Source of the DNA: Phascolarctobacterium sp.
GTDB lineage: Bacteria > Bacillota > Negativicutes > Acidaminococcales > Acidaminococcaceae
Assembly (NCBI GenBank): GCA_017623055.1
Contig: JAGAPX010000005.1
Span: 1 to 64,000 of the forward strand
Length of the DNA stretch: 64,000 nucleotides
Reading direction: 5' to 3'
The translations under genes and the position numbers were made by a program. Shown piece by piece: positions 13,013 through 62,809 of the stretch (position 1 is the first letter of the stretch; the number at the start of each line of letters is the position of its first letter). The notes under the pieces are model-generated. The model was given only the letters and a program-made list of their open reading frames with translations. It made no database searches and had not been told where the DNA came from.

Positions 13013-13480
13013 ATGGCAGAACAAAAAGTAAAAATCATTTCAGAAAATAGAAAAGCGCGCCACGATTATACTATTCACGAAGTCTACGAGGCAGGTATTG
13101 CCTTGACTGGTACGGAAGTAAAATCTTTGCGCGCTGGCAAAGCAAATATGAAGGATAGCTATGCTCAAGTTACTCGTAACGCAGAGGTCTTTGTGTATAA
13201 TTTACACATTAGCCCCTATGACCACGGTAACATTTTTAACCACGAGCCTTTGCGTAACCGTCGACTGCTTTTGCACAGACAAGAGATTAACAAGCTTGTT
13301 GGGAAGGTTAAAGAAAAGGGTATGGCGCTTGTGCCCTTGAAGCTTTATTTTAAACATGGTCTTGTAAAAATGGAGCTTGCCTTGGCAACTGGTAAGAAGC
13401 TTTACGATAAGCGTCAAGATTTGGCGAAAAAGGATGCGAAAAGAGAAATGGATCGCGCTTTGAAAGAAAGAAATCGTTGA
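13013..13480 (+). CDS. smpB: SsrA-binding protein SmpB
   Basis: The tmRNA-binding partner for trans-translation. It is a beta-barrel protein with conserved [18 protein letters not shown], the GTEVKSLR segment, and the basic C-terminal tail that reads the empty A site. The length of 155 aa is standard. It lies 2 bp after rnr, 91 bp upstream of ssrA. Confidence 0.97.
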
Positions 13481-13507
13481 CTTTTTGACATTTTACAAAT
13501 TTGTCAA

Positions 13508-13536
13508 TTGCGATTTAGGAAGAAGCGTGTTACAAT
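13508..13536 (+). promoter_or_regulatory. Promoter of ssrA
   Basis: TTGCGA (13508-13513) and TACAAT (13531-13536) are spaced 17 bp. The predicted start lies about 30 nt before the mature 5' end, as expected for a processed tmRNA precursor. Confidence 0.65.
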
Positions 13537-13571
13537 ACTATCGTAGCGTATCCACTTAAACCTTTTAACTT

Positions 13572-13921
13572 GGGTCTGTACTGGTTTCGACGGGGGTAGG
13601 TGTGGTATGATAAGCGAGCCGTGGTCTCACTAGCACGTTAATCAGTGAACGTTTAAATATAAACGCTAACAAAGAATACGCTTTAGCAGCTTAATTTGCT
13701 AACTGTCGCCTGAGCCTCTTCCCACGGGTGAGGGATGACAGTAAAACAGTGGGATACCTTACTTCTTATTCTCGGCGGTTGTAAGGGAAACTCATCGAGA
13801 TAGCAACCAAGAAGCCCGTCGCTAGGCATCGAGGAAGCGAATTAAAGTATGGCGTCTGCGCTCGGAGAAAGTTGTATTGCAATATTTTCGGACAGGGGTT
13901 CGACTCCCCTCAGATCCACCA
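13572..13921 (+). ncRNA. ssrA: Transfer-messenger RNA (tmRNA)
   Basis: A complete tmRNA. The 5' acceptor strand GGGTCTG (13572-13578) pairs with CAGATCC (13911-13917), followed by an encoded ACCA. The T-arm contains GGTTCGACTCC. The tag frame begins at GCT 13665 and ends at TAA 13692-13694, giving ANKEYALAA (after the charged Ala). The 3' end is intact, so it was not disrupted by the neighbouring prophage. It is a classic integration landmark and lies just left of phage-type genes. Confidence 0.97.
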
Positions 13922-14759: not shown

Positions 14760-14808
14760 AAGCCTACCAAATGGCTAAGGAATAGCTAAAGATGTGGAGG
14801 AATTTACA

Positions 14809-15732
14809 ATGTTGATTAAAGAACAAAACTTCGGCGTAGAAATAGAACTTACCGGTATCACTCGTGAACAAGCTGCAGGTGTTATTGCACAATATTTTGG
14901 AACTACTGCAAGATATGCTGGCACTGTTTACAAAGTATGGGAAGCAAAAGACCGTAAAAATCGTATCTGGAAAGCAGTTCGTGACGCAAGCATTCAAACT
15001 CAACGCCAATCTGATGGTCGCAAAATTCCTGCTAACGATGCTTACTCTTGTGAAATTGTCACTCCTATTCTTCAGTACGAAGATATGGAAGACCTCCAAG
15101 AAATTATACGGTTGTTAAGAGTTGAAGGTGGCTTCGCTAATAGCTCTACTGGCATTCACGTACACATTGATGGCGTAAGACATAATTCCAAAAGCCTGCA
15201 ACGATTGATTAACTTCGCAGTTGGTCGCCAAGACTTGTTTTACGAAGCATTGCAAATTGGTACAAGAGCAAATCGTTGGTGCAAGAAAATGTCCGCAGAT
15301 TTACTTAATGCAATGAAGAATGACCAACGTAAATGCAAATCCAGTACCGAAAGAATTTGGTACAGTTCTGCGAATGATAATTATTCTGGCGGTATTGACC
15401 ATCAACATTACAATTCCACAAGATATCATGGCGTAAATTTACACGCTTTCTTTACCAAAGGCACCGTTGAATTCAGATTGTTTAACGGAACCACTCACGC
15501 AGGCAAAATTAAAGCTTATGTTCAATTCTGCTTGGCTATGTCTGCTTGGGCAATAGAAACTGATAGCGAAAATCTCTATTTCAAATCTTGTGCTCATTAT
15601 ACCCAAGAACAAAAAGCTGCTCTGATGAATAGAGTGCTTGTAAATCGTCTTGGAATGAAAGGTAAAGAGTTTAAAACTGCAAGGCTTCATCTGACTGCAG
15701 CGTTTATCAACAATGCAGAAGCAGTAGCATAA
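14809..15732 (+). CDS. Amidoligase-family protein (glutamine-synthetase-like fold)
   Basis: A 307-aa protein resembling phage and prophage amidoligases (Amidoligase_2 type), which are predicted to form amide or peptide bonds using ATP. The opening FGVEIELTGI matches the family's GxExE metal/nucleotide motif. A central SSTGIHVHIDG and a later GTVEFRLFNGTTH supply the other conserved acidic and basic residues. ATG 14809 lies behind GTGGAGGAA; the in-frame GTG at 14794 is part of that ribosome site. It is paired with a gamma-glutamylcyclotransferase gene 47 bp downstream. The substrate is unknown. Confidence 0.75.
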   Translation: MLIKEQNFGVEIELTGITREQAAGVIAQYFGTTARYAGTVYKVWEAKDRKNRIWKAVRDASIQTQRQSDGRKIPANDAYSCEIVTPILQYEDMEDLQEIIRLLRVEGGFANSSTGIHVHIDGVRHNSKSLQRLINFAVGRQDLFYEALQIGTRANRWCKKMSADLLNAMKNDQRKCKSSTERIWYSSANDNYSGGIDHQHYNSTRYHGVNLHAFFTKGTVEFRLFNGTTHAGKIKAYVQFCLAMSAWAIETDSENLYFKSCAHYTQEQKAALMNRVLVNRLGMKGKEFKTARLHLTAAFINNAEAVA

Positions 15733-15779
15733 AATATTATGCTGACCTAACGGCAAGACGGGGAGAAGGAGAAGACACG

Positions 15780-16250
15780 ATGAGCAAAAAACTTTACTTG
15801 GCTTATGGTAGTAATCTTAATATCGACCAAATGAAATACCGTTGTCCGGATGCTGAAAAAATTGGCTCGACCATTCTACGTGGCTACGAATTAGTATTTA
15901 GAGGAAATATGCGTCGCTGCGGTGTAGCCAACATTGAAAAGAAAGAGGGGAGTGTTGTTCCTGTTGGTATATGGAGCATTAGCGAGGCGGACGAAATCGA
16001 ACTGGACAAATACGAGGGTTACCCTTACCTCTATGAAAAAGAATGGTTGACGGTAGAATTTGGAGGCAAAGAACATAAGGTTATGGCCTACATAATGACG
16101 GGGAACCCTGGCTATGCACTTCCAGTTCGAGGATACTTCAACACCATTCTTGAGGGCTTCGATGATTTTGACTTAGATAAAGATGTACTCTTTAAGGCGG
16201 CTTTGAAAACCAAGAACAGATTGTTTGAAAAGTTTAAATTAAGAAAATGA
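15780..16250 (+). CDS. Gamma-glutamylcyclotransferase-like (GGCT/AIG2) protein
   Basis: A 156-aa GGCT-fold enzyme. The N-terminal LAYGSNLNIDQM is the family's substrate-binding loop. The expected catalytic Glu lies in the LDKYEGYPYLYEK segment (about residues 78-90). These enzymes cleave gamma-glutamyl amines to 5-oxoproline. Linkage to an amidoligase suggests one makes and the other trims or recycles a gamma-glutamyl-type amide. Such pairings are known in amidoligase operons. The chemistry here is inference. The gene ends at a terminator shared with the phage lysis genes. Confidence 0.8.
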   Translation: MSKKLYLAYGSNLNIDQMKYRCPDAEKIGSTILRGYELVFRGNMRRCGVANIEKKEGSVVPVGIWSISEADEIELDKYEGYPYLYEKEWLTVEFGGKEHKVMAYIMTGNPGYALPVRGYFNTILEGFDDFDLDKDVLFKAALKTKNRLFEKFKLRK

Positions 16251-17840: not shown

Positions 17841-17872
17841 AAAGGACAGTCGCAATTAGCGATTGTCCTTTT
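17841..17872 (-). terminator. Terminator after the DGR reverse transcriptase
   Basis: Reading on the minus strand, a 12-bp stem with one mismatch (17842-17853 with 17859-17870) is followed by TTTTTT. It overlaps the reverse-transcriptase stop and separates the retroelement from the lysis genes. Confidence 0.8.
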
Positions 17873-18950
17873 ATTTACTGTGCCTGATAAGCACGAACTT
17901 TTCGATTAAGTTTCTTTTTAGGTTGTCGGAATCAGTATATTTTAAGAGTCCCATATAGCTTTGGAAAACTGCAATACAATAATCTAACGGTAGTTCTCCG
18001 GAAGAGTAATGCTTCATTACAAAATCAAGATGCCGTTTCATCTGCAGAGAAGTTGACTTGCGCACTTGGATTTTATGTGGCCAAACTCTACGCCCAACAA
18101 ATTCAACACCGGAATTGAGAGGAAGAACTGCTGTTTTATCGTTAAGCTGCAGACCGAGGTTTATTCTAAGATATTGGTCGACTTCGTGTGCAATGTCCCA
18201 AGCCCATTGCTTTGAAGGACAAATAACAATCATATCGTCCATATATCTTGCGTAGTATGGAACTTGAAGAACTCTTTTTATGAAGTGGTCTAGTGGCGTC
18301 AATACTACGTTTGCGGTCATTTGGCTGATCAGCGAACCAACCTGCATACCAATACCGGCAATTCTTTCAGCCGTTGTTACATCGGTGCAATTTACAGGCA
18401 AGCCAAGCGGTCGGCCATCACAACGTATGGCTTTTTCGAGAAACCACATCATATCAGCATCATTAAGAGGCTTTCCAAGTTCTCTAAGCTGAACATCAAC
18501 AGGAATTCTGAAAAAGAATTTAGCTATATCCAGTTTAACGACAAACCAATCATCAGGCTTACGTTGGGCAATTCTCAACCATTCTTGGAGTTTTTGAACA
18601 GCTTTGACGGAGCCACGATTAGGTATGCTTCCGTAACTGTATTCATAGAATGATTTTGAGTATATGGGCCAAAGCTGCAGATATGCAGCACAGTTAATCA
18701 CTCGGTCATTGAACGGCAAGGAGTGAATGAGCCTTACTTTTGGGAAGTACTCATAAAAAGGGCGAGGCTTCCCAGTTTCGTACATCTTCCATTGCAGGCG
18801 GTTCATATCGTTAATGATATATTCTTCGAGGTTTGTGCTATAGTCCAGTACTTCCCTGTAGTACCGCTTGTCTCTGCGAGCCAACAAGTAGCCATTATAC
18901 AAATTATCAAACGTTGCAAAGCGTTCAAAAACGTGCGAATACTTTTCCAT
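17871..18950 (-). CDS. Reverse transcriptase of a diversity-generating retroelement (DGR)
   Basis: A 359-aa reverse transcriptase. Motif A is VVKLDIAKFFFRIP, the catalytic motif C is YARYMDDMIVI, and motif 4 VGSLISQ matches the [IVL]GxxxSQ signature that separates DGR enzymes from group II intron and retron RTs. ATG 18950 is chosen because GGGAG lies 8 bp upstream; a longer GTG frame to 18980 lacks one. It copies the TR RNA (encoded just upstream) with errors at adenines, and the cDNA replaces VR. A typical DGR RT is 300-400 aa with no maturase domain, as here. Confidence 0.95.
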   Translation of the reverse strand: MEKYSHVFERFATFDNLYNGYLLARRDKRYYREVLDYSTNLEEYIINDMNRLQWKMYETGKPRPFYEYFPKVRLIHSLPFNDRVINCAAYLQLWPIYSKSFYEYSYGSIPNRGSVKAVQKLQEWLRIAQRKPDDWFVVKLDIAKFFFRIPVDVQLRELGKPLNDADMMWFLEKAIRCDGRPLGLPVNCTDVTTAERIAGIGMQVGSLISQMTANVVLTPLDHFIKRVLQVPYYARYMDDMIVICPSKQWAWDIAHEVDQYLRINLGLQLNDKTAVLPLNSGVEFVGRRVWPHKIQVRKSTSLQMKRHLDFVMKHYSSGELPLDYCIAVFQSYMGLLKYTDSDNLKRNLIEKFVLIRHSK

Positions 18951-19122
18951 AGCTTTTCTCCCGAAGCCTGATTTTGTCACGAGTGCCGTACTCTATGAGT
19001 CGGAACACTGGCTTATGCAGTAATAATTTTTCTGCCAGCAGAACTAACAGAGGAAACAAGTCCCTTTATCAACCGTTGTACTGGAATTAACCCGTTAGGT
19101 TGAAGACATCTGACATACGGTA

Positions 19123-19230
19123 AAGCGGAGCGGAAGCCAATGTTCCTGTTGGCGTTAGAACGACCGTTGTTGCCGTTGAAAGAGGGCAACCCATAAGTAG
19201 CGTTGTTCCAATTGCCGCCGGAGTAGAAGC
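19123..19230 (-). repeat. DGR template repeat (TR)
   Basis: A 108-bp non-coding repeat between avd and the reverse transcriptase. It matches VR (19788-19895) at 104 of 108 positions with no gaps. The four differences lie at TR plus-strand T19143, T19147, T19171 and T19203, all adenine on the minus (template-sense) strand. Read in the VR frame, TR would encode Asn (AAC), Asn, Arg (AGG) and Asn at the variable sites, the AAY-rich pattern of DGR templates. Positions 18951-19122 and 19231-19252 have no gene and probably belong to the TR RNA. Confidence 0.96.
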
Positions 19231-19252
19231 CGCAACAACCTGTTCCCTTATG

Positions 19253-19600
19253 TTAAGTGGGCTTCTTAATGGCCTTTATCCACCCACCTATCATCTTGCC
19301 TATTTCTACAATTTTTTCAGACCAAATTTCATATTTTTTTGTTGGTAAAAATCCAAGCTGATGTGATAGACGGATATAAGCACGCAGTTTGAGTTGAGCA
19401 ATATCCATATCTTGAAGCGTTGTCTTTTTGTAATACCTTTTTTGAGCTTCGATGCACAATTCTAAGAGCTTGTCCATGGTGCGCTTAATATCGGTTACTA
19501 AAGCAAATTTTTCAGATTTAGGATATTGAGCTAATGCAGGGTAGGCGTAATCCATCATATCAAATATTTTCTGCAAAAGTTTCAGTTCATCATCAGCCAT
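19253..19600 (-). CDS. avd: Accessory variability determinant (Avd)-like DGR protein
   Basis: A 115-aa all-helical, basic protein of the four-helix-bundle family (related to the 23S-rRNA-IVP fold) that binds the DGR RT and TR RNA. It has regular amphipathic helices: LLQKIFDMMDYAYPALAQY, a Lys-rich DIKRTMDKLLELCIEAQKRYY, and an Arg/Leu-rich LKLRAYIRLSHQLGFL. ATG 19600 with GGAGG 7 bp upstream is preferred over a longer frame to 19762 that would overlap the VR-side hairpins. It sits between VR and TR, the usual avd position. Confidence 0.9.
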   Translation of the reverse strand: MADDELKLLQKIFDMMDYAYPALAQYPKSEKFALVTDIKRTMDKLLELCIEAQKRYYKKTTLQDMDIAQLKLRAYIRLSHQLGFLPTKKYEIWSEKIVEIGKMIGGWIKAIKKPT

Positions 19601-19693
19601 AAATACCTCCAAATGGTATTTATATTTTACTGGAAAAGTTTTGGGCACGTTGTTTTTTGGGAGAAAATAACGAATTTCGTTAGACCTAAAATT

Positions 19694-19720
19694 TCTAAAA
19701 AAATTTTCGGCTACGCCGAA
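19694..19720 (-). terminator. Terminator between target gene and avd
   Basis: On the minus strand the stem TTCGGC/GCCGAA (19706-19711, 19715-19720) is followed by AATTTTTTT. It would end the tail-fibre transcript after the target gene. Confidence 0.7.
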
Positions 19721-19731
19721 TAAAGAGATAT

Positions 19732-19753
19732 GTCCTCCGCTATCGCAGAGGAC
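19732..19753 (-). promoter_or_regulatory. DGR target-site hairpin downstream of VR
   Basis: A 9-bp inverted repeat (19732-19740 with 19745-19753, one G-T pair) encloses a GATA loop on the coding strand, 34 bp past the end of VR. Known DGR targets have a short hairpin/cruciform with a GRNA tetraloop after VR that improves retrohoming, and GATA fits GRNA. Confidence 0.75.
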
Positions 19754-19764
19754 ACAGTACACAG

Positions 19765-20841
19765 TTAAGCAGTAGGCAGCTTCACGTAAGCGGAGCGGAA
19801 GCCAATGCTCCAGTTGGCGTTAGAACGACCGTTGTGGCCGTTGAAAGAGGGCAACCCATAAGTAGCGCTGTTCCAATTGCCGCCGGAGTAGAAGCTTCTT
19901 TCAGCTTCAGCATTATTAAACCAGCAACCATTTGCGCTGAAAAGGTCATTGGTATCATACATTAACATGCCAAGGTTTTGTAATAGCAATTTAGCTTGTT
20001 CTCCGATTGTGCTATTGCAAACTACGTTAGCAAAAGTAGTGTAGTGTTCACCTCTTGCAGCATCTGTAATTGTGGTAGAATAAGTCAGCTTATTACTAAT
20101 GAAGTCCATTTTTACAGAGCCGGAAGTTGTACCGTTACCGTCCGGAGTAATCAGTTCGCCGTCAGAAGCACGGATAGCTTTCCATTCAGTACTGGACACA
20201 CCTTGAGAGTTCAAGCTGTCTGCTGCATTGTTATTGGCGAGGATTTGGAGTTCGCCATATACAGTGCGAATACCGCCCATCCACTCCCATACGTTACCGC
20301 AAAGGTCAGCGATACCGCCCGGTGTTTTGTCGTGATACCATTCTAACGGACCGGTGCCAGTAGCAATACGAGCAATTCTACCGTCTGATTCGTGAGCTGT
20401 AGGAATTGCTTTGTAGGAGTTTTCGGTGGAGTGTTTGCCGTAATTGTTGTTGCCTAAAGGCATAAAACCATTTTGTTGACACCAACGCACAAGCAAGCCC
20501 CATTCCATACGTGTCATAAGATGCCAGCCTTCGCCTTTGTTTTCGCAAACTTGAATGGCTGTATCTAAGTTAATACCTGTTTTCGGGTCGACGCCGCCTA
20601 TGGAATAAGCTCTATTGTTTTGGACGATGTTTTCAAACTTAGAAATATAGATTTCATCTACTTCTTGACCGTTGACGATGAAGCAAGGGTGAACGGCAGT
20701 ACTTTCACCCATGCCAAGTTGGGCATAGGTGAGTTTAGGAATTTTATACATCAAAGACGGAAAGCCAAGGTCATCATAGAGAACTTCGTTGCCAGGGCAG
20801 ACACCTTGCAATGCTAATGCAGTCAAATCATAATTTGCCAT
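19765..20841 (-). CDS. DGR-diversified receptor-binding protein (C-type-lectin/FGE fold)
   Basis: A 358-aa phage tail-tip protein. The N-terminal part (about 1-90) is probably the tail-attachment region. The rest resembles formylglycine-generating-enzyme/CLec domains: EWGLLVRWCQQNG, GGIADLCGNVWEWMGG, and a C-terminal FYSGGNWN...GFRSAY block. The last 36 residues or so are encoded by VR and present the variable residues 325, 336, 344 and 345 on a ligand-binding surface. It lies last in the tail-fibre cluster, so it probably determines host adsorption. A GGAGG ribosome site precedes the ATG. Confidence 0.92.
   Translation of the reverse strand: MANYDLTALALQGVCPGNEVLYDDLGFPSLMYKIPKLTYAQLGMGESTAVHPCFIVNGQEVDEIYISKFENIVQNNRAYSIGGVDPKTGINLDTAIQVCENKGEGWHLMTRMEWGLLVRWCQQNGFMPLGNNNYGKHSTENSYKAIPTAHESDGRIARIATGTGPLEWYHDKTPGGIADLCGNVWEWMGGIRTVYGELQILANNNAADSLNSQGVSSTEWKAIRASDGELITPDGNGTTSGSVKMDFISNKLTYSTTITDAARGEHYTTFANVVCNSTIGEQAKLLLQNLGMLMYDTNDLFSANGCWFNNAEAERSFYSGGNWNSATYGLPSFNGHNGRSNANWSIGFRSAYVKLPTA
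19788..19895 (-). repeat. DGR variable repeat (VR)
   Basis: A 108-bp repeat forming the 3' end of the target gene (about residues 317-351). Against TR it carries C19808, A19812, G19836 and C19868 in place of T. On the coding strand these are A-to-G, A-to-T, A-to-C and A-to-G, changing Asn325 to Ser, Asn336 to His, Arg344 to Trp and Asn345 to Ser. The adenine-only pattern is the record of past mutagenic homing. Confidence 0.96.
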
Positions 20842-24239: not shown

Positions 24240-24685
24240 AGAGTGGCCCTCCCTGCGTATTCGCTGATTGTAACATCTACATCAACGGAATAAAGATTTC
24301 CTCCTGCCCAATGCTTAACTGACTCATTGATTCTTGTTAGTACCCACAAGCCTACATTGTTGGCATAAGGAGCTTTGAGAATTTGTGTTTTTATGGCTTC
24401 CCCGATTACCTTAGAACCTAAGACCAAAGGAACTGCTTGACCGGTATCTCTCATTTTACGCAGTTGCTTGAGTAGTATTTCTGGCTCAATGCCGTGGTCG
24501 CGTCTTAAGCTGATCCGGAAAGAAATTTCTTCTAAATCGGGGCCAAGGAATTCAAGTATGGGTTTATTATTAACAATTTCGTGTTTTGCCCAACGTCCTT
24601 CGCCTTGGCGCTGGTAATCATCAAAGGTAACGAGGTAGTCACGAGATGTAACGAAAGGGATTTCCCCCAAATAACCTACAATCAT
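24236..24685 (-). CDS. P2 gpU-like tail protein
   Basis: A 149-aa tail protein of the gpU family, acting at the tail tip during assembly. Recognised by the EGRWAKHEIVNNKPILEF segment, the RISLRRDHGIEPE motif and the HWAGGNLYSVDVDVTISEY end. In P2-like clusters it neighbours the tape measure, gpX and gpD, as it does here. GGAGG lies just before the ATG. Confidence 0.88.
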   Translation of the reverse strand: MIVGYLGEIPFVTSRDYLVTFDDYQRQGEGRWAKHEIVNNKPILEFLGPDLEEISFRISLRRDHGIEPEILLKQLRKMRDTGQAVPLVLGSKVIGEAIKTQILKAPYANNVGLWVLTRINESVKHWAGGNLYSVDVDVTISEYAGRATL

Positions 24686-32245: not shown

Positions 32246-32847
32246 TGTTTAACCTCCGCAAATTGTCTTTGAATTTCGTGTAGAAAGCGTTTGTTAAGAT
32301 AACGTTCACTTTCTGGAGTAAACGTACTCAACACATCTTCGCTGCCAAACATCTGAGGAACAGACGGACCGTAAGGTATTCTAATAGGATAAGCCGTTTT
32401 GGTATAGCGGTGCATTGGGCCAGCGTATCCGCTTCGAGAAGATTTCTGAATGAATAATCCCGGAACAGATGCAGTTACACCACGTTTTTTAATCTGCACT
32501 CTCATAGGTCTCTTACGTCTTTTCGGTTTACGTCCTGTCTTGTAGAGTTTAATAATACTCATCGGATTTGGAAGCAAACGAAAATGTGTAAGATTCAAAG
32601 GTGAGCCGCTGGCTCTAATTGTACCCTGTAATTTATCACGAGTAGGTCCTTTTGCAACAATGGTACCTTTAATGGAAGAAGCACGAGCGGTATATGTTTG
32701 GCGAATGTGCTTTGACACTTTGCTACGCATAGACGTAACAGTACGTCCTATAGCATTGGAAGCTGCTTTTCTGACTTTTAACGGACTGACAGTGAGAAAC
32801 TTTTGTGCAGTATTTAAACTGTTGTTGTCAAAAGTTATCTTAATCAT
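32242..32847 (-). CDS. Minor tail protein Z-like protein
   Basis: A 201-aa very basic protein (Lys/Arg-rich centre around residues 105-125) resembling the prophage minor tail protein Z family. Supporting segments are the N-terminal VRKAASNAIGRTVTSMRSKVSKHIRQTYT (given as ASNAIGRTVTSMRSKVSK) and the later GYAGPMHRYTKTAYPIR. It probably acts at the head-tail junction. Its ATG overlaps the upstream stop (ATGA), and its stop overlaps the next gene. Confidence 0.75.
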   Translation of the reverse strand: MIKITFDNNSLNTAQKFLTVSPLKVRKAASNAIGRTVTSMRSKVSKHIRQTYTARASSIKGTIVAKGPTRDKLQGTIRASGSPLNLTHFRLLPNPMSIIKLYKTGRKPKRRKRPMRVQIKKRGVTASVPGLFIQKSSRSGYAGPMHRYTKTAYPIRIPYGPSVPQMFGSEDVLSTFTPESERYLNKRFLHEIQRQFAEVKQ

Positions 32848-35093: not shown

Positions 35094-35498
35094 TTATTCT
35101 TCCTCCTTAGCATTTTTACCGAGAGCGATAGCAACAGCTACACGAGCTTCTTGGTATTTTTCTTCCTGGGTTTTCGGTTCAGCCTTTTCTTCAGGCGCCG
35201 GAGTTGCGGATACTTCTTGAACTCCACTCTCTTGATTATCCGCAATAATTCCTTTCATAAATGCAGAGCCTTGTTTTGCGGCTTCGACAGCTGCACGATA
35301 AGTAAGCTCTTTGGCGCTACAAGGATTTTCGCCGTATTTAGCTTCTGTTACCAATTCGTTGGGGAACAGACTTGCTACTACGTCGATTTCTTGCATTCGA
35401 GTACGTTCGTTAGCAACTGCAACGGTTGCGGCTGCTGCTTCGATTTGCGCAACAAGTTCAGGATATTCGTTACGCAATTCTTCAATGTTGTTTGCCAT
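35094..35498 (-). CDS. Nested scaffold protein translated from within the protease gene
   Basis: An in-frame ATG at 35498 preceded by a perfect AGGAGG (35507-35512) 8 bp upstream would make a separate 134-aa product identical to the protease C-terminus (beginning MANNIEELRNEYPELVAQIE). It is acidic and helical, as scaffolds are. This repeats the lambda C/Nu3 arrangement. Inferred from the ribosome site and composition. Confidence 0.7.
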   Translation of the reverse strand: MANNIEELRNEYPELVAQIEAAAATVAVANERTRMQEIDVVASLFPNELVTEAKYGENPCSAKELTYRAAVEAAKQGSAFMKGIIADNQESGVQEVSATPAPEEKAEPKTQEEKYQEARVAVAIALGKNAKEEE

Positions 35499-40864: not shown

Positions 40865-41386
40865 TTATACATAAGTTAGGATTTCAGCCTTGCTATATGT
40901 TTCGCCTTTGGCCATCATTGCAATAAATTCTTCTTTGGAGAAGTCACTTAATCTGAAGATTTCTTCTGGCTTCATTCCAAGTTGCTTTGATATCTCTGCC
41001 GTTGTCTTACCACTCTCAATGAGTTTTTTGACAATGGCTTTCATCGGTTCCAAAAGGTGTGTGCCTCTTGCTCTGTTGTGGGTAATAGTTCCATACATAT
41101 CTTCGGCTTCGTCGCCATGGGCGACAACTACCACAGGAACTTTACCACCGAGCTTGGTTTTTAACGGCTCACGCCCAGCTACCGTCCAACGATGAAAACC
41201 GTCGATGATTGTGTAATCTGGTCTTACAACGATAGGTAATGTCCAACCGTTGGTTTCAATGGATTGCACTAAAAGCTTTAGGTTTTCTTCGCTAACTTTG
41301 TTAGGGTTGTACGAATTGGCTTTGAGTTTATCGTGGTCTACCCATTGCAGGGAAGAAAGCGGTCCAAACAAATCAATGTTGCTCAT
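40865..41386 (-). CDS. ParB-like nuclease-domain protein, IbrB type
   Basis: A 173-aa ParB/Srx-fold protein. The core is TIIDGFHRWTVAGRE (a variant of the ParB GHRR motif), followed by NRARGTHLLEPMKAI and an HTH-like C-terminus (TAEISKQLGMKPEEIFRL). Its partner upstream is a PAPS-reductase-like protein (41383-42546), overlapping by 4 bp. This IbrA/IbrB-type pair recurs in phages and enterobacterial islands. Its biochemical role is not established. Confidence 0.8.
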   Translation of the reverse strand: MSNIDLFGPLSSLQWVDHDKLKANSYNPNKVSEENLKLLVQSIETNGWTLPIVVRPDYTIIDGFHRWTVAGREPLKTKLGGKVPVVVVAHGDEAEDMYGTITHNRARGTHLLEPMKAIVKKLIESGKTTAEISKQLGMKPEEIFRLSDFSKEEFIAMMAKGETYSKAEILTYV

Positions 41387-42546
41387 TCATTCTCACCACC
41401 TTCCGTGTGGCGGAACTTCTTGGCGTAAGCCGCATAATTTGTATAGACATCTTGATACACCGCACGAAGCGAACGTATCTTAGGGTCGCCTGCAACAAGA
41501 GCGTCATACATTTTACGGTAATCTCTCTGTCGAGCCATTCCGTCCAATTTTTGGTAAGCACGTCTGTATTGTGCTGCAACGTATTGAGTTGTCGGATTAG
41601 TAAAGTGTTTTGCGTGGTCTACAAAAAGCATTCTGCGCAACAGTTCTTTATAATCTTTCTTTTCGTAGTCCTCGTTCTTACGCCTTACCTTAGAACTACG
41701 CTTGTACCATTCGCTATCCCAATAAAGCATTACAAGGTAAGCATTCGGCTCCCTGCGTTCGATGCGACTCCACAAATCGGGATTGGTTTCAGCTACATGC
41801 TTTAAGCCACGTAAGCTATCTGCACCGAAGAAGTTGGATATGCGGAGTGATCGTCTGCTTTCGCCAGCTTGGTACATCCAAATATAAGCTTCTGGAATAT
41901 CCAGTTTGTTATCTCGAATATAAAGCCAAACATCTTTGTCTTTCCAATCATAAATTGGGTAGATTGTGTTTGAGCCGGTAATGCCTTTCTTGCCGAGATT
42001 AAGACGACTCATATATTGCAAGCGTTGTACTGACTCTGCAGCTCTAACGCCAGTCAACATAATTCCGTCTTTTGTTGTTCTAAGTAGGAAGCTTTGGTAA
42101 TTTTCTTTACCGATGCCCAAAAGGTAAGGGCTGTTCATAATGGCGAACGGTGGTGGCTTGCGTACCCAAATATTTTCTTTTCCGGGTTCCCAAGTAATCC
42201 ACGTTTCGCTATTCTGCAGATGATTAAAACAGGAAACTTGTTTTAAGGGGAGGCAATACCATAGAAAATCTTTGCAACCAGCAAGCAGAAATTTCTTGCG
42301 CCAGTCAAGCATAGAATCAATGCAACAATCATAAATGGCTTCTTCGTCAACAAAGATTAAAGTCAACTGTTTAGGATTTATTTCGCCTTTCCGTATAAGT
42401 TGATAAACGATGTTGGCCATACAGATTGAGTCTTTGCCACCCGATAAGCTCATATACACTGGCAAGCCGTTAGAAAATACATTTTTAATTCGCAGTATCG
42501 CAGCTTCGACAACCGTCATACTGCTTTGCTTACGAATTACAGCCAT
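41383..42546 (-). CDS. PAPS-reductase-like ATP pyrophosphatase, IbrA/DUF3440 type
   Basis: A 387-aa adenine-nucleotide alpha-hydrolase. The PP-loop is YMSLSGGKDSICMAN (about residues 31-45). IYPIYDWKDKDVWLYI is the second conserved block, followed by a long basic C-terminal region characteristic of the IbrA/DUF3440 group. Such enzymes adenylate or sulfurate substrates; DndC is a DNA-modifying relative. The substrate here is unknown. It is the second PAPS-reductase-like gene in this cassette and overlaps both ParB-like neighbours. Confidence 0.85.
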   Translation of the reverse strand: MAVIRKQSSMTVVEAAILRIKNVFSNGLPVYMSLSGGKDSICMANIVYQLIRKGEINPKQLTLIFVDEEAIYDCCIDSMLDWRKKFLLAGCKDFLWYCLPLKQVSCFNHLQNSETWITWEPGKENIWVRKPPPFAIMNSPYLLGIGKENYQSFLLRTTKDGIMLTGVRAAESVQRLQYMSRLNLGKKGITGSNTIYPIYDWKDKDVWLYIRDNKLDIPEAYIWMYQAGESRRSLRISNFFGADSLRGLKHVAETNPDLWSRIERREPNAYLVMLYWDSEWYKRSSKVRRKNEDYEKKDYKELLRRMLFVDHAKHFTNPTTQYVAAQYRRAYQKLDGMARQRDYRKMYDALVAGDPKIRSLRAVYQDVYTNYAAYAKKFRHTEGGENE

Positions 42547-43169
42547 ATTGTTTCACCACATTTCGGGCAAATTACATAATGGCCTTGAGGAGCGTTTTCT
42601 TTAAGCGGTGCAGGGGAAACTGTGGGGGAGGGTGTTTCATAAGCAGGCTGGGGCAAATCCTGTTGAGGCAAAGCCTGTTTTGCTTCTTGTCTCTCGTAGT
42701 TTTCCCTTGCTTCAATGAGGGTTTCTTTTCTTTCCTCGTCAATAATGCCGTAATCGGCCATCATTGTATCAACATTATCTAAATCAGCGGTTAAGGTTGA
42801 TAGTAAGTCGTGGTCATAGCCGGGAACATCTAAGTCGTCACCAAGGTCACGAATGAGGCGGTCGAACGCCGCCATATCATCAACGCCTAAATCGAAGATG
42901 CGATTGTCGGAAAGCATCATTTTCTTTTTCTGCTTATCCGATAAATTATATTTCACATAGCAATATGCTTCTTCAAAACCTGCTTCCTGCATAGCTTTAA
43001 AGAGACCATTGCCAATCCAGATTACGTTATGCTCGTCAATAACAATCGGTTTAAGCTGACCGTTTTGCTTCAAGGAGCGAACGTACTCTTTTATTTGTTT
43101 ATCTGGGTGCATACGCACGTTATCCGGATTTAATTTGAGTTCAGATAGTTTTTTGGTGATAATCTCCAT
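42537..43169 (-). CDS. ParB-like domain protein with C-terminal zinc-knuckle
   Basis: A 210-aa protein. The N-terminal ParB/Srx domain has LSELKLNPDNVRMHPDKQI and VIWIGNGLFKAMQEAGF, where GNGLFKA replaces the usual GHRR. A Pro-rich linker (about 165-195) leads to CPKCGETIW, half of a zinc ribbon. It is sandwiched between two PAPS-reductase-like genes, with stop-start overlaps (TAATG). It resembles phage ParB-domain proteins found with DNA-modification genes. Enzymatic activity is unproven. Confidence 0.78.
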   Translation of the reverse strand: MEIITKKLSELKLNPDNVRMHPDKQIKEYVRSLKQNGQLKPIVIDEHNVIWIGNGLFKAMQEAGFEEAYCYVKYNLSDKQKKKMMLSDNRIFDLGVDDMAAFDRLIRDLGDDLDVPGYDHDLLSTLTADLDNVDTMMADYGIIDEERKETLIEARENYERQEAKQALPQQDLPQPAYETPSPTVSPAPLKENAPQGHYVICPKCGETIWL

Positions 43170-60899: not shown

Positions 60900-61068
60900 C
60901 TTTGATGATTCGTTTTGATACAATCAATGTGACGAAAGGCACTTCGAGGACGGAACGGGCAGCCGTCACCACGCTTAGGCGGTAGGAGATGTGGGAATGT
61001 CACCCCACCGATTTGTCTGTACGGTATAACCCGAGTTACATTGGTAGCTCGGGTTTTTATTTTTATGT
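60896..61068 (+). ncRNA. Candidate structured non-coding RNA
   Basis: A near-consensus promoter TTGACT (60896-60901)-17 bp-TACAAT (60919-60924) drives a region with consecutive stems (GACGG/CCGTC at about 60949-60967; GTGGG/CCCAC at about 60992-61009) and an intrinsic terminator (ACCCGAG/CTCGGGT, about 61027-61056, then Ts). The transcript is about 130 nt. No convincing coding frame is present on either strand. Confidence 0.6.
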
Positions 61069-61246: not shown

Positions 61247-62809
61247 ATGGCAAAGAGAACATTACCTAAGAAAATTAAAAAGGGTGGTATTGCCGTTATT
61301 TATGCACGTTACTCTTCTCACAACCAAAGAGATGTGAGCATTGAGCAACAAGTAGAAGCGTGCATGAAATACGCTAAAGACTCTGGACTGAACGTAGTAG
61401 ACACCTACGCTGATAGAGCTGTTACTGGACGATCAGACCGCAGGCCAAAATTCCAAAAAATGATGCGAGATGCTGAGTCTGGAAAATTTGAGTTTGTAAT
61501 TTCGTGGAAGTCTAACCGTATTGGTCGTAATATGCTCCAAGCTATGAATAACGAAGCGAGGCTTGCTGATTGCGGAGTACGTGCAGTTTTCGTAGAAGAA
61601 GACTTCGAGGATAATGCTGCAGGTCGCTTTGCCTTACGTTCTATGATGAACGTCAATCAATTCTATTCAGAGAATATGGCCGAGGACATTCAACGTGGTT
61701 TAGATGATAATGCTTCCAAGTGCCTTGTGAACGGGAACGGTGGCTTCGGCTTCAAGCGTGGGGAAGATGGTCGCTATGCATTGGATTCTCCCAAAGATGC
61801 AATAGTACGTGAAATCTTTGAGCGTGTTGCTAAAAGAGAGCCAATCGTGGATATTATGAACAGCCTTAACGAGCGTGGGATTAAAACATCTAGAGGAGGT
61901 AAGTGGAACCGTAGCAGCTTCCAAAAGATGTTGATAAATGAACGCTATCGTGGCGTGTACATTTATAAAGACCACTATATAGAAGGTGGCGTTCCGAGAA
62001 TTGTTAGTGATGATATTTTCTACAGGGTGCAGGAGGTAGTTAATATGAATAAACAAGTTAAGACCAAAAGACGCAGAACTGAAAACGGTACTTATCTATT
62101 AACTGGCAAATTATTCTGCGGTCATTGCAAATCTCATATGACTGGTATCTCCGGTACAAGTGGCCGTGGGTATCTTCATTTCTACTATACCTGCAGGAAG
62201 AGAAGAGTGGAAAAAGCCTGTAAAAAACGAAACGTTCAAAGAGATTATATTGAAAGGATTGTTGCGAAAGCCATTAAAGATTATTGCTTGAATGATGAAA
62301 TACTGGAAGTTATTGCTGATCAGACAGTAGAATATAACAAGAAGCAACTTCAAAATAATGAGTTGATTTTACTTGAGCAAGAACTTGCAAGTGTTAATAC
62401 AGGATTGCAAAATTTATTGAGAGCAATAGAAGCTGGCATCTTTAGCGATACAACAAGACAACGCATGCTTGATTTAGAAAAGCAAAAGGCTTCCCTTGAA
62501 TGTAAAATAGAAGAATTCAAATTTAATGTTGTACCGATAGATAGGGAAGATTTGATAGCGGGCTTAGCAATGTTCCGAGACGGTGACATTGAAGATAAAC
62601 GATTCCAAGCAGCGTTATTTGACACGTTTCTTCTAGCAGTGTATATTTATGATAACAACCTAAAACTGGTATTCACTTTCACCGGTGCGAACAATTCCAT
62701 TGAAGTTCCGTTAGAGGAAGTGGAAGACGCAGAAAGTGATGTTATTTTAGAAATTAAAGATGGGGTGCTTGTTCGTTCAAGCTCTGCTAATGTCCACCAC
62801 AAAAAATAA
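61247..62809 (+). CDS. Large serine recombinase (phage integrase)
   Basis: A 520-aa serine integrase. The N-terminal resolvase domain has the nucleophile Ser in IYARYSSHNQRDVSIEQQ and later RSDRRPKFQKMM and WKSNRIGRN. A recombinase domain follows (about 155-280), then a zinc-ribbon (LFCGHCKSHM...YTCRKRR) and a coiled-coil C-terminal part. It inserts and excises the prophage at short att sites. It is next to the host pgi gene, so the right prophage end should be near 62,810-62,860. Confidence 0.95.
   Translation: MAKRTLPKKIKKGGIAVIYARYSSHNQRDVSIEQQVEACMKYAKDSGLNVVDTYADRAVTGRSDRRPKFQKMMRDAESGKFEFVISWKSNRIGRNMLQAMNNEARLADCGVRAVFVEEDFEDNAAGRFALRSMMNVNQFYSENMAEDIQRGLDDNASKCLVNGNGGFGFKRGEDGRYALDSPKDAIVREIFERVAKREPIVDIMNSLNERGIKTSRGGKWNRSSFQKMLINERYRGVYIYKDHYIEGGVPRIVSDDIFYRVQEVVNMNKQVKTKRRRTENGTYLLTGKLFCGHCKSHMTGISGTSGRGYLHFYYTCRKRRVEKACKKRNVQRDYIERIVAKAIKDYCLNDEILEVIADQTVEYNKKQLQNNELILLEQELASVNTGLQNLLRAIEAGIFSDTTRQRMLDLEKQKASLECKIEEFKFNVVPIDREDLIAGLAMFRDGDIEDKRFQAALFDTFLLAVYIYDNNLKLVFTFTGANNSIEVPLEEVEDAESDVILEIKDGVLVRSSSANVHHKK

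What the first reader, a model, noticed from the sequence alone, without database searches (positions are those of the whole stretch)
17871..20841. Complete prophage DGR with adenine-only TR/VR differences
Target gene, VR, Avd, TR and RT are all present in order. TR (19123-19230) and VR (19788-19895) align over 108 bp without gaps; all four mismatches are at adenines on the coding strand (A to G, T, C, G), out of 23 template adenines. They change residues 325, 336, 344 and 345 of the target. Chance restriction to adenines is improbable, so the element has been active. It sits in a phage with a P2-like tail, so it probably tunes receptor binding.
Basis: partly seen in the sequence, partly recalled or inferred. 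Interest (0 to 1): 0.9.

Follow-up and report, generated by a model that had tools for sequence, protein, structure and literature searches.

The report
Phage DGR with CTG-ladder target site

Summary
TR (19123-19230) and VR (19788-19895) align over 108 bp with four mismatches, all at TR adenines (p=0.0017), in a complete cassette: FGE/C-type-lectin target, Avd, TR, DGR-type RT. It is syntenic with the Faecalibacterium phage FP_Lagaffe cassette, so the DGR itself is a new member of a known kind. Eleven pairs of near-identical related phages differ in VR at 148 positions, 142 of them TR adenines, so the family is active. This copy is only lightly changed: 4/23 adenines, the lowest of 110 DGRs (median 52%).

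Four or more rungs occur in 50 of 86 DGR clusters and in 0 of 20,908 background windows. The ladder ignores the stop codon, accompanies distant second VRs in two phages, and with the hairpin loop retrieved target-gene ends in 22 of 24 blind hits. I found no description of it. Its role as recipient mark is inferred.

The parts
19765..20841 (-). Target gene, 358 aa, FGE/C-type-lectin fold; VR is its 3' end
   Evidence: Pfam FGE-sulfatase 3.8e-7; phrog_2889 8.5e-109; PDB 5VF4 TaqVP 6.8e-51; AF2 model pLDDT 89.6 matches 5vf4, E 3e-36, TM 0.86-0.88
19788..19895 (-). Variable repeat (VR)
   Evidence: 108 bp, 4 mismatches to TR, all at TR adenines
19755..19779 (-). CTG ladder: CTG at 19779-19777, 19772-19770, 19764-19762, 19757-19755 (steps 7, 8, 7), crossing the target stop codon 19767-19765
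   Evidence: the only 4-rung CTG ladder on either strand of the 64-kb window
19731..19754 (-). Hairpin/cruciform, 10-bp stem with one G-T pair, GATA loop (GRNA type), directly after the ladder
   Evidence: consensus in PMC3240598
19253..19600 (-). avd, 115 aa (ATG 19600, ribosome site GGAGG)
   Evidence: bAvd 3.7e-30, phrog_3206 Avd 1.8e-38
19123..19230 (-). Template repeat (TR)
   Evidence: single copy in the genome besides VR
19237..19248 (-). 5' arm of the helix joining the two TR flanks (AGGGAACAGGTT)
   Evidence: Covarying 12-bp helix, all 12 pairs formed in the window
19051..19062 (-). 3' arm of the same helix, in the TR-RT spacer (GACTTGTTTCCT)
   Evidence: a pairing at a similar spacer position in BPP-1
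19087..19104 (-). Spacer hairpin
   Evidence: Covarying helix in relatives, only 5 of 8 pairs in the window
18979..19012 (-). Spacer stem-loop just before RT
   Evidence: Covarying helix, 11 of 11 pairs in the window
17871..18950 (-). DGR reverse transcriptase, 359 aa (ATG 18950; GTG 18980 is a weaker alternative start)
   Evidence: RVT_1 3.7e-19, phrog_1423 3.5e-97, motifs VGSLISQ and YMDD

Best explanation
This is a complete and probably working diversity-generating retroelement in a contractile-tailed prophage. The Avd-TR-spacer RNA is folded by helices around TR, one of which joins the two TR flanks; the Avd-RT complex copies TR within this RNA, misreading adenines; the cDNA then replaces VR at the 3' end of a tail-associated lectin-fold gene and varies its binding surface. 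The recipient is marked on the DNA by two elements 3' of VR: a GRNA-loop hairpin and, newly noticed here, a ladder of four CTG triplets at 7-8-nt steps. My best guess is that the ladder is read as single-stranded sense DNA, by the DGR complex or a partner, and helps to make VR rather than TR the recipient, in the place that the 21-bp IMH holds in BPP-1. Shown: anatomy, adenine bias, activity in relatives, RNA covariation, and the ladder's link to VRs. Inferred: activity of this copy, receptor binding, and what reads the ladder. The confidence given is for the DGR reading; for the ladder's role see the section on the most novel reading.
For: TR/VR with 4/4 mismatches at A. Across 110 non-redundant DGRs 1391/2704 TR adenines differ against 61/9563 other bases. 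Near-identical phage pairs: 148 VR differences, 142 at TR A (11 distinct pairs); the flanks of L022/L023 and L025/L026 are identical over about 2.4 kb. RT, Avd and target family matches. Same gene order as FP_Lagaffe, which produces virions (PMC5883640). Hairpin with GATA loop. Covariation score 0.519 against 0.254 (sd 0.016) in shuffles and at most 0.145 slid. Ladder: 4 or more rungs in 50/86 clusters, 0/20,908 background windows; next triplet is ACT, 13/86, which overlaps CTG; at least 2 rungs past the stop codon in 48/50, TR 3' flank 1/86; present at both second, distant VRs examined; 22/24 blind hits lie at DGR target ends.
Against: No close relative of this prophage was found, so the activity of this copy rests on TR/VR alone. 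Only 4/23 adenines differ, the lowest of 110 DGRs. BPP-1 works without a CTG ladder, as must other DGRs without it, so the ladder is not a general requirement. FP_Lagaffe VR2 has a ladder but no clear hairpin. No experiment was possible. Detection of relatives required A-biased repeats, which lowers the non-A rate reported.
Confidence: 0.9

Rival explanations
1. The DGR is a relic: it was active long ago and VR is now frozen, which is why only 4 of 23 adenines differ.
For: Lowest changed fraction of 110 DGRs; binomial p about 8e-4 against the relatives' mean.
Against: All genes are open, the RT catalytic and DGR motifs are intact, the TR-joining helix and hairpin are intact. TR and VR are identical at all 85 non-A positions, which points to recent copying. 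4/23 fits one pass at the 30.65% rate measured for the BPP-1 enzyme in E. coli (PMC12875486): p = 0.12.
Confidence: 0.08
2. The low number of changes is partly an assembly effect: reads from TR and from many different VR variants were averaged, pulling the VR consensus towards TR.
For: The genome is a draft of 46 contigs, and VR populations can be mixed.
Against: Metagenomic relatives show about half of the adenines changed. Raw reads were not available.
Confidence: 0.2
3. The CTG ladder is a coding artefact: the conserved C-terminus LP(T/S)A happens to spell CTG twice.
For: In the window the first two rungs lie in the codons of LPTA.
Against: Steps of 7 and 8 nt are out of frame; at least 2 rungs lie beyond the stop codon in 48 of 50 clusters and all four in 13; FP_Lagaffe VR2 has it inside a longer gene.
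Confidence: 0.04
4. The ladder serves transcription or translation of avd, which follows the target gene, rather than retrohoming.
For: In most loci the ladder lies just upstream of avd.
Against: The second VRs of FP_Lagaffe and Dulem virus 37, 9-11 kb away and not followed by avd, carry it too.
Confidence: 0.12
5. The ladder is a set of primase start sites (CTG is the E. coli DnaG start triplet, from memory) that set Okazaki fragments next to VR on the lagging-strand template.
For: Homing prefers targets whose sense strand is the lagging-strand template (PMC12875486), and the CTGs lie on that strand.
Against: Some Vibrio and Pseudoalteromonas phages use TTG-rich ladders, while the Firmicutes primase I know of prefers other triplets (memory); changing DnaG activity had no effect in E. 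coli, though with the ladder-less BPP-1 element, and the authors call that result inconclusive.
Confidence: 0.15

Closest known systems
Faecalibacterium phage FP_Lagaffe DGR (MG711461; PMC5883640, PMC11792537)
   Same: Same gene order: J, I, three small genes, FGE-type target, Avd, TR, RT, two small genes, endolysin, holin; 13-bp helix joining the TR flanks; CTG ladder after VR.
   Different: RT only 34% and target 49% identical. Lagaffe has two VRs; this genome has one. Lagaffe uses an IS30-type integrase; this prophage has a large serine recombinase.
Bordetella phage BPP-1 DGR (mtd-avd-TR-brt)
   Same: Order, Avd, RT motif, GRNA-loop hairpin after VR, and pairing of the TR upstream flank with the spacer at about the same position.
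   Different: BPP-1 has (GC)14 plus a 21-bp IMH (PMC3240598) and no CTG ladder. Mtd matches the target model only weakly.
Thermus aquaticus prophage DGR, TaqVP (5VF4, PMC6328139)
   Same: Target fold over full length, TM 0.86-0.88, 31% identity.
   Different: Distant host; its target-site DNA was not examined here.
Bacillus phage BalMu-1 and Dulem virus 37 DGRs
   Same: A-biased TR/VR, TR-flank helix, CTG ladder, GRNA-loop hairpin.
   Different: RT 40% and 38% identical; Dulem 37 has a second, distant VR.

Membership tests
Diversity-generating retroelement (DGR) | TR/VR pair with mismatches at TR adenines | tested here: met
   4 of 4
Diversity-generating retroelement (DGR) | RT of the DGR type, [IVL]GxxxSQ and YxDD | tested here: met
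   VGSLISQ, YMDD; groups with RTs that have their own A-biased TR/VR (quick tree)
Diversity-generating retroelement (DGR) | Accessory protein Avd | tested here: met
   bAvd 3.7e-30, phrog_3206
Diversity-generating retroelement (DGR) | Hairpin/cruciform 3' of VR, GRNA loop | tested here: met
   GATA loop, 10-bp stem, 19731-19754
Diversity-generating retroelement (DGR) | Target with a variable-protein fold (C-type lectin / FGE) | tested here: met
   5VF4, E 3e-36
Diversity-generating retroelement (DGR) | Adenine-specific mutagenic homing in living phage | not testable with these tools
   Only relatives show it, by sequence comparison
BPP-1-type target site | GC-only (GC)14 plus 21-bp IMH similar to IMH* of TR at the 3' end of VR | tested here: not met
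   TR/VR identity ends at 19788/19123; what follows VR is the CTG ladder and has no counterpart after TR. The identical VR end CTTCCGCTCCGCTT may play the (GC)14 part, but is not GC-only
BPP-1-type DGR RNA | Spacer between TR and RT that folds and pairs with the sequence before TR | tested here: met
   Helix at spacer +61 to +72 with the TR upstream flank; BPP-1 pairs at about the same place
FP_Lagaffe-type DGR module | Gene order from baseplate J to lysis genes | tested here: met

The most novel reading that the evidence does not exclude
A row of CTG (or CTG/TTG) triplets at strict 7-8-nt steps between VR and the hairpin is an undescribed recipient mark of a large group of Avd-type phage DGRs, read on single-stranded DNA by the DGR complex or a replication partner; it takes the place of the BPP-1 IMH and gives homing its direction from TR to VR.
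Probability: 0.45. Interest if true: 0.75.

Novelty: new variant of a known kind. Interest (0 to 1): 0.5.

Why it matters
How a DGR picks VR rather than TR as recipient, and how the cDNA enters the target, are open questions known mainly from one phage, BPP-1. A short, regular DNA element shared by most related phages and absent beside TR is a concrete thing to mutate. If it proves to be the recipient mark, it would help to find DGR targets by sequence, distant second targets included.

Tried and rejected
Second VR in this genome: none, by DNA and by protein. Close relatives of this prophage: RT relatives in IMG/VR and GTDB reach 71% identity at most, and none of the three same-genus genomes searched has a related RT, so a direct strain-level VR comparison was not possible. 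Ladder pairing with the spacer RNA: own spacer slightly better than other spacers (-22.4 against -21.3 kcal/mol, permutation p 0.0025), but shuffled own spacers reach -20.4 and base composition is a confounder, so not claimed. Ladder as peptide or avd signal: see rivals. Attachment site: no shared 12-mer between the two prophage ends. A single-locus duplex test of the TR-flank helix was not significant in the window (p 0.14); the helix rests on covariation. Avd had no PDB sequence match. The careful RT tree did not finish; only the quick one was used. Reading of supplements was not available. A two-sequence folding request failed on length and was not repeated.
Full report
**What was checked.** TR (19123-19230) and VR (19788-19895) are a 108-bp ungapped pair on the minus strand. 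The four mismatches are all at TR adenines, 23 of 108 TR bases being A (p = 0.0017). They change codons 325, 336, 344 and 345 of the 358-aa target. The cassette order target-avd-TR-RT is as stated. Probable starts are ATG 19600 for avd and ATG 18950 for RT, judged from ribosome sites and from relatives.

**What the genes are.** RT: RVT_1, phrog_1423, motifs VGSLISQ and YMDD. Avd: bAvd and the PHROG 'Avd protein of DGR'. Target: FGE family, phrog_2889, sequence match to PDB 5VF4 at 6.8e-51. The AlphaFold model (mean pLDDT 89.6) matches 5VF4, the Thermus aquaticus DGR variable protein, over its whole length (E 3e-36, TM 0.86-0.88), and Mtd only weakly. Upstream genes are P2 I- and J-like baseplate proteins; sheath, capsid, portal and terminase lie further upstream. 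FP_Lagaffe has the same order from baseplate J to the lysis genes, and its virions are produced in culture (PMC5883640). The DGR itself is therefore a new member of a known kind.

**Is it active?** I found no close relative of this prophage. The family is active: 11 distinct pairs of near-identical phages differ in VR at 148 positions, 142 at TR adenines (duplicate records counted once). For L022/L023 the flanks are identical over about 2.4 kb while VR differs at 11 sites, 10 of them TR adenines. Over 110 non-redundant DGRs, 51% of TR adenines differ between TR and VR, against 0.6% of other bases; the search required A-biased repeats, so the second figure is biased low. The window, with 4/23 (17%), is the lowest of all. 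That is unlikely at the relatives' mean (p about 8e-4) but fits one pass at the 30.65% rate measured for the BPP-1 enzyme in E. coli (PMC12875486; p = 0.12). All 85 non-A positions are identical, which suggests recent copying. Averaging of reads in assembly cannot be excluded.

**RNA structure.** An alignment of 16 sequences (the window and 15 relatives) around TR gives four covarying helices: 94.5% of cells paired, covariation score 0.519 against 0.254 (sd 0.016) in shuffles and at most 0.145 when slid. One is a 12-bp helix joining the sequence just before TR (19237-19248) with the spacer (19051-19062), fully formed in the window. The same flank pairs with the spacer from about +57 in BPP-1, and a long flank helix occurs in FP_Lagaffe (13 bp), BalMu-1 (11) and Dulem 37 (9). 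Invariant AAGG lies just before the spacer arm. In BPP-1 an internal spacer adenine primes the cDNA (PMC12875486); from memory it is A56, and position 56 here is an A in the conserved GATAAAGG. A corresponding priming site is an inference.

**Target site.** A hairpin with GATA loop lies 3' of the target (19731-19754), fitting the GRNA loop and GC-rich stem that BPP-1 needs (PMC3240598). Between VR and this hairpin runs AAGctgCCTActgCTTAActgTGTActg: CTG at steps of 7, 8 and 7 nt, ending directly at the stem.

**The ladder is not chance.** In 86 DGR clusters (80% identity of the VR-TR interval), 50 have four or more CTGs at 7-8-nt steps within 60 nt of VR and 57 have three or more. Background windows of the same loci give 0 and 27 of 20,908. 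The next triplet, ACT, reaches 13 and 16 and overlaps CTG; other step sizes give few, apart from the overlapping 6-7 class. Of the 50, 25 have steps 7-8-7 and 17 have 7-7-8, and the last CTG mostly ends 0-4 nt before the stem. At least two rungs lie past the stop codon in 48 of 50 and all four in 13, so the coding sequence does not explain it. The TR 3' flank has it in 1 of 86. The 64-kb window has exactly one such ladder, at VR.

**Independent tests.** FP_Lagaffe and Dulem 37 each have a second VR 9-11 kb away; both carry a ladder, which links it to VR and not to avd. A blind search of IMG/VR for ladder plus GATAGC gave 24 hits; 22 lie at the 3' end of DGR-type target genes, as read by eye from the translated upstream sequence (the script's own blast column missed these ends because the divergent VR is the part adjacent to the hit). 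The ladder is clustered on the RT tree (12 changes, 25 in shuffles; quick tree) and goes with Avd (60 of 79 with Avd, 1 of 8 without; Fisher 7e-4; a slightly wider definition that includes four-rung CTG/TTG ladders; relatedness not corrected). Some Vibrio and Pseudoalteromonas phages have TTG or mixed ladders; BPP-1 has none.

**What the ladder may do.** In BPP-1 the same place holds a 21-bp IMH that sets the direction from TR to VR (PMC3240598). Here TR/VR identity ends before it, and TR has no ladder. The favoured homing orientation puts the sense strand on the lagging-strand template (PMC12875486), so the ladder would be single-stranded there; 7-8-nt steps do not follow the 10.5-bp helix repeat, which also suits single-stranded reading. 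I take a recipient mark read by the DGR complex as most likely, with primase sites or other replication factors as a rival. None of this has been tested.

**Literature.** Searches for CTG or conserved motifs with DGR terms found no description; the term CTG does not occur in the main texts of PMC3240598, PMC8144416, PMC12875486 and PMC11792537. Subscription papers and supplements were not read, so the novelty claim is provisional.

**Score.** The DGR as reported is ordinary for gut phages. The ladder lifts the interest; hence 0.5 overall, and 'new variant' refers only to the target-site architecture, which this element shares with its relatives.

Noticed in passing
window 60939-61016 (+): Rfam 'skipping-rope' RNA (55.7 bits, E 1e-10), about 230 nt before a large serine recombinase gene (61247-62809) at the right end of the prophage.
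   Followed up: no
window 13013-13921 (+): smpB and an intact tmRNA gene (tag ANKEYALAA) lie left of the prophage, with glycolysis genes beyond; a glucose-6-phosphate isomerase gene lies to the right. No shared 12-mer between the two ends, so the exact attachment site is unknown.
   Followed up: partly
window 41383-43169 (-): PAPS-reductase-like protein next to a protein with a weak ParB_N match, just upstream of the terminase genes of the prophage.
   Followed up: no
window 14794-16250 (+): Amidoligase and gamma-glutamyl cyclotransferase genes side by side near the left end of the prophage, on the opposite strand to the structural genes.
   Followed up: no
L204 (MG711461) 32592-32750: Second VR of FP_Lagaffe, in a gene that continues past it: a ladder of five CTG triplets (steps 7-9) but no clear hairpin.
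   Followed up: partly
L205 (PP511443) 24269-24340 and 35368-35440: The two VRs of Dulem virus 37 share the same hairpin sequence but differ in the letters between the CTGs of their ladders. The TR lies in a stretch annotated as a gene for an 'enediyne biosynthetic pathway protein', probably an annotation error.
   Followed up: partly
L190 1676-2404: A contig with two VRs for one TR (10 and 11 changes, all at adenines) and no CTG ladder.
   Followed up: no
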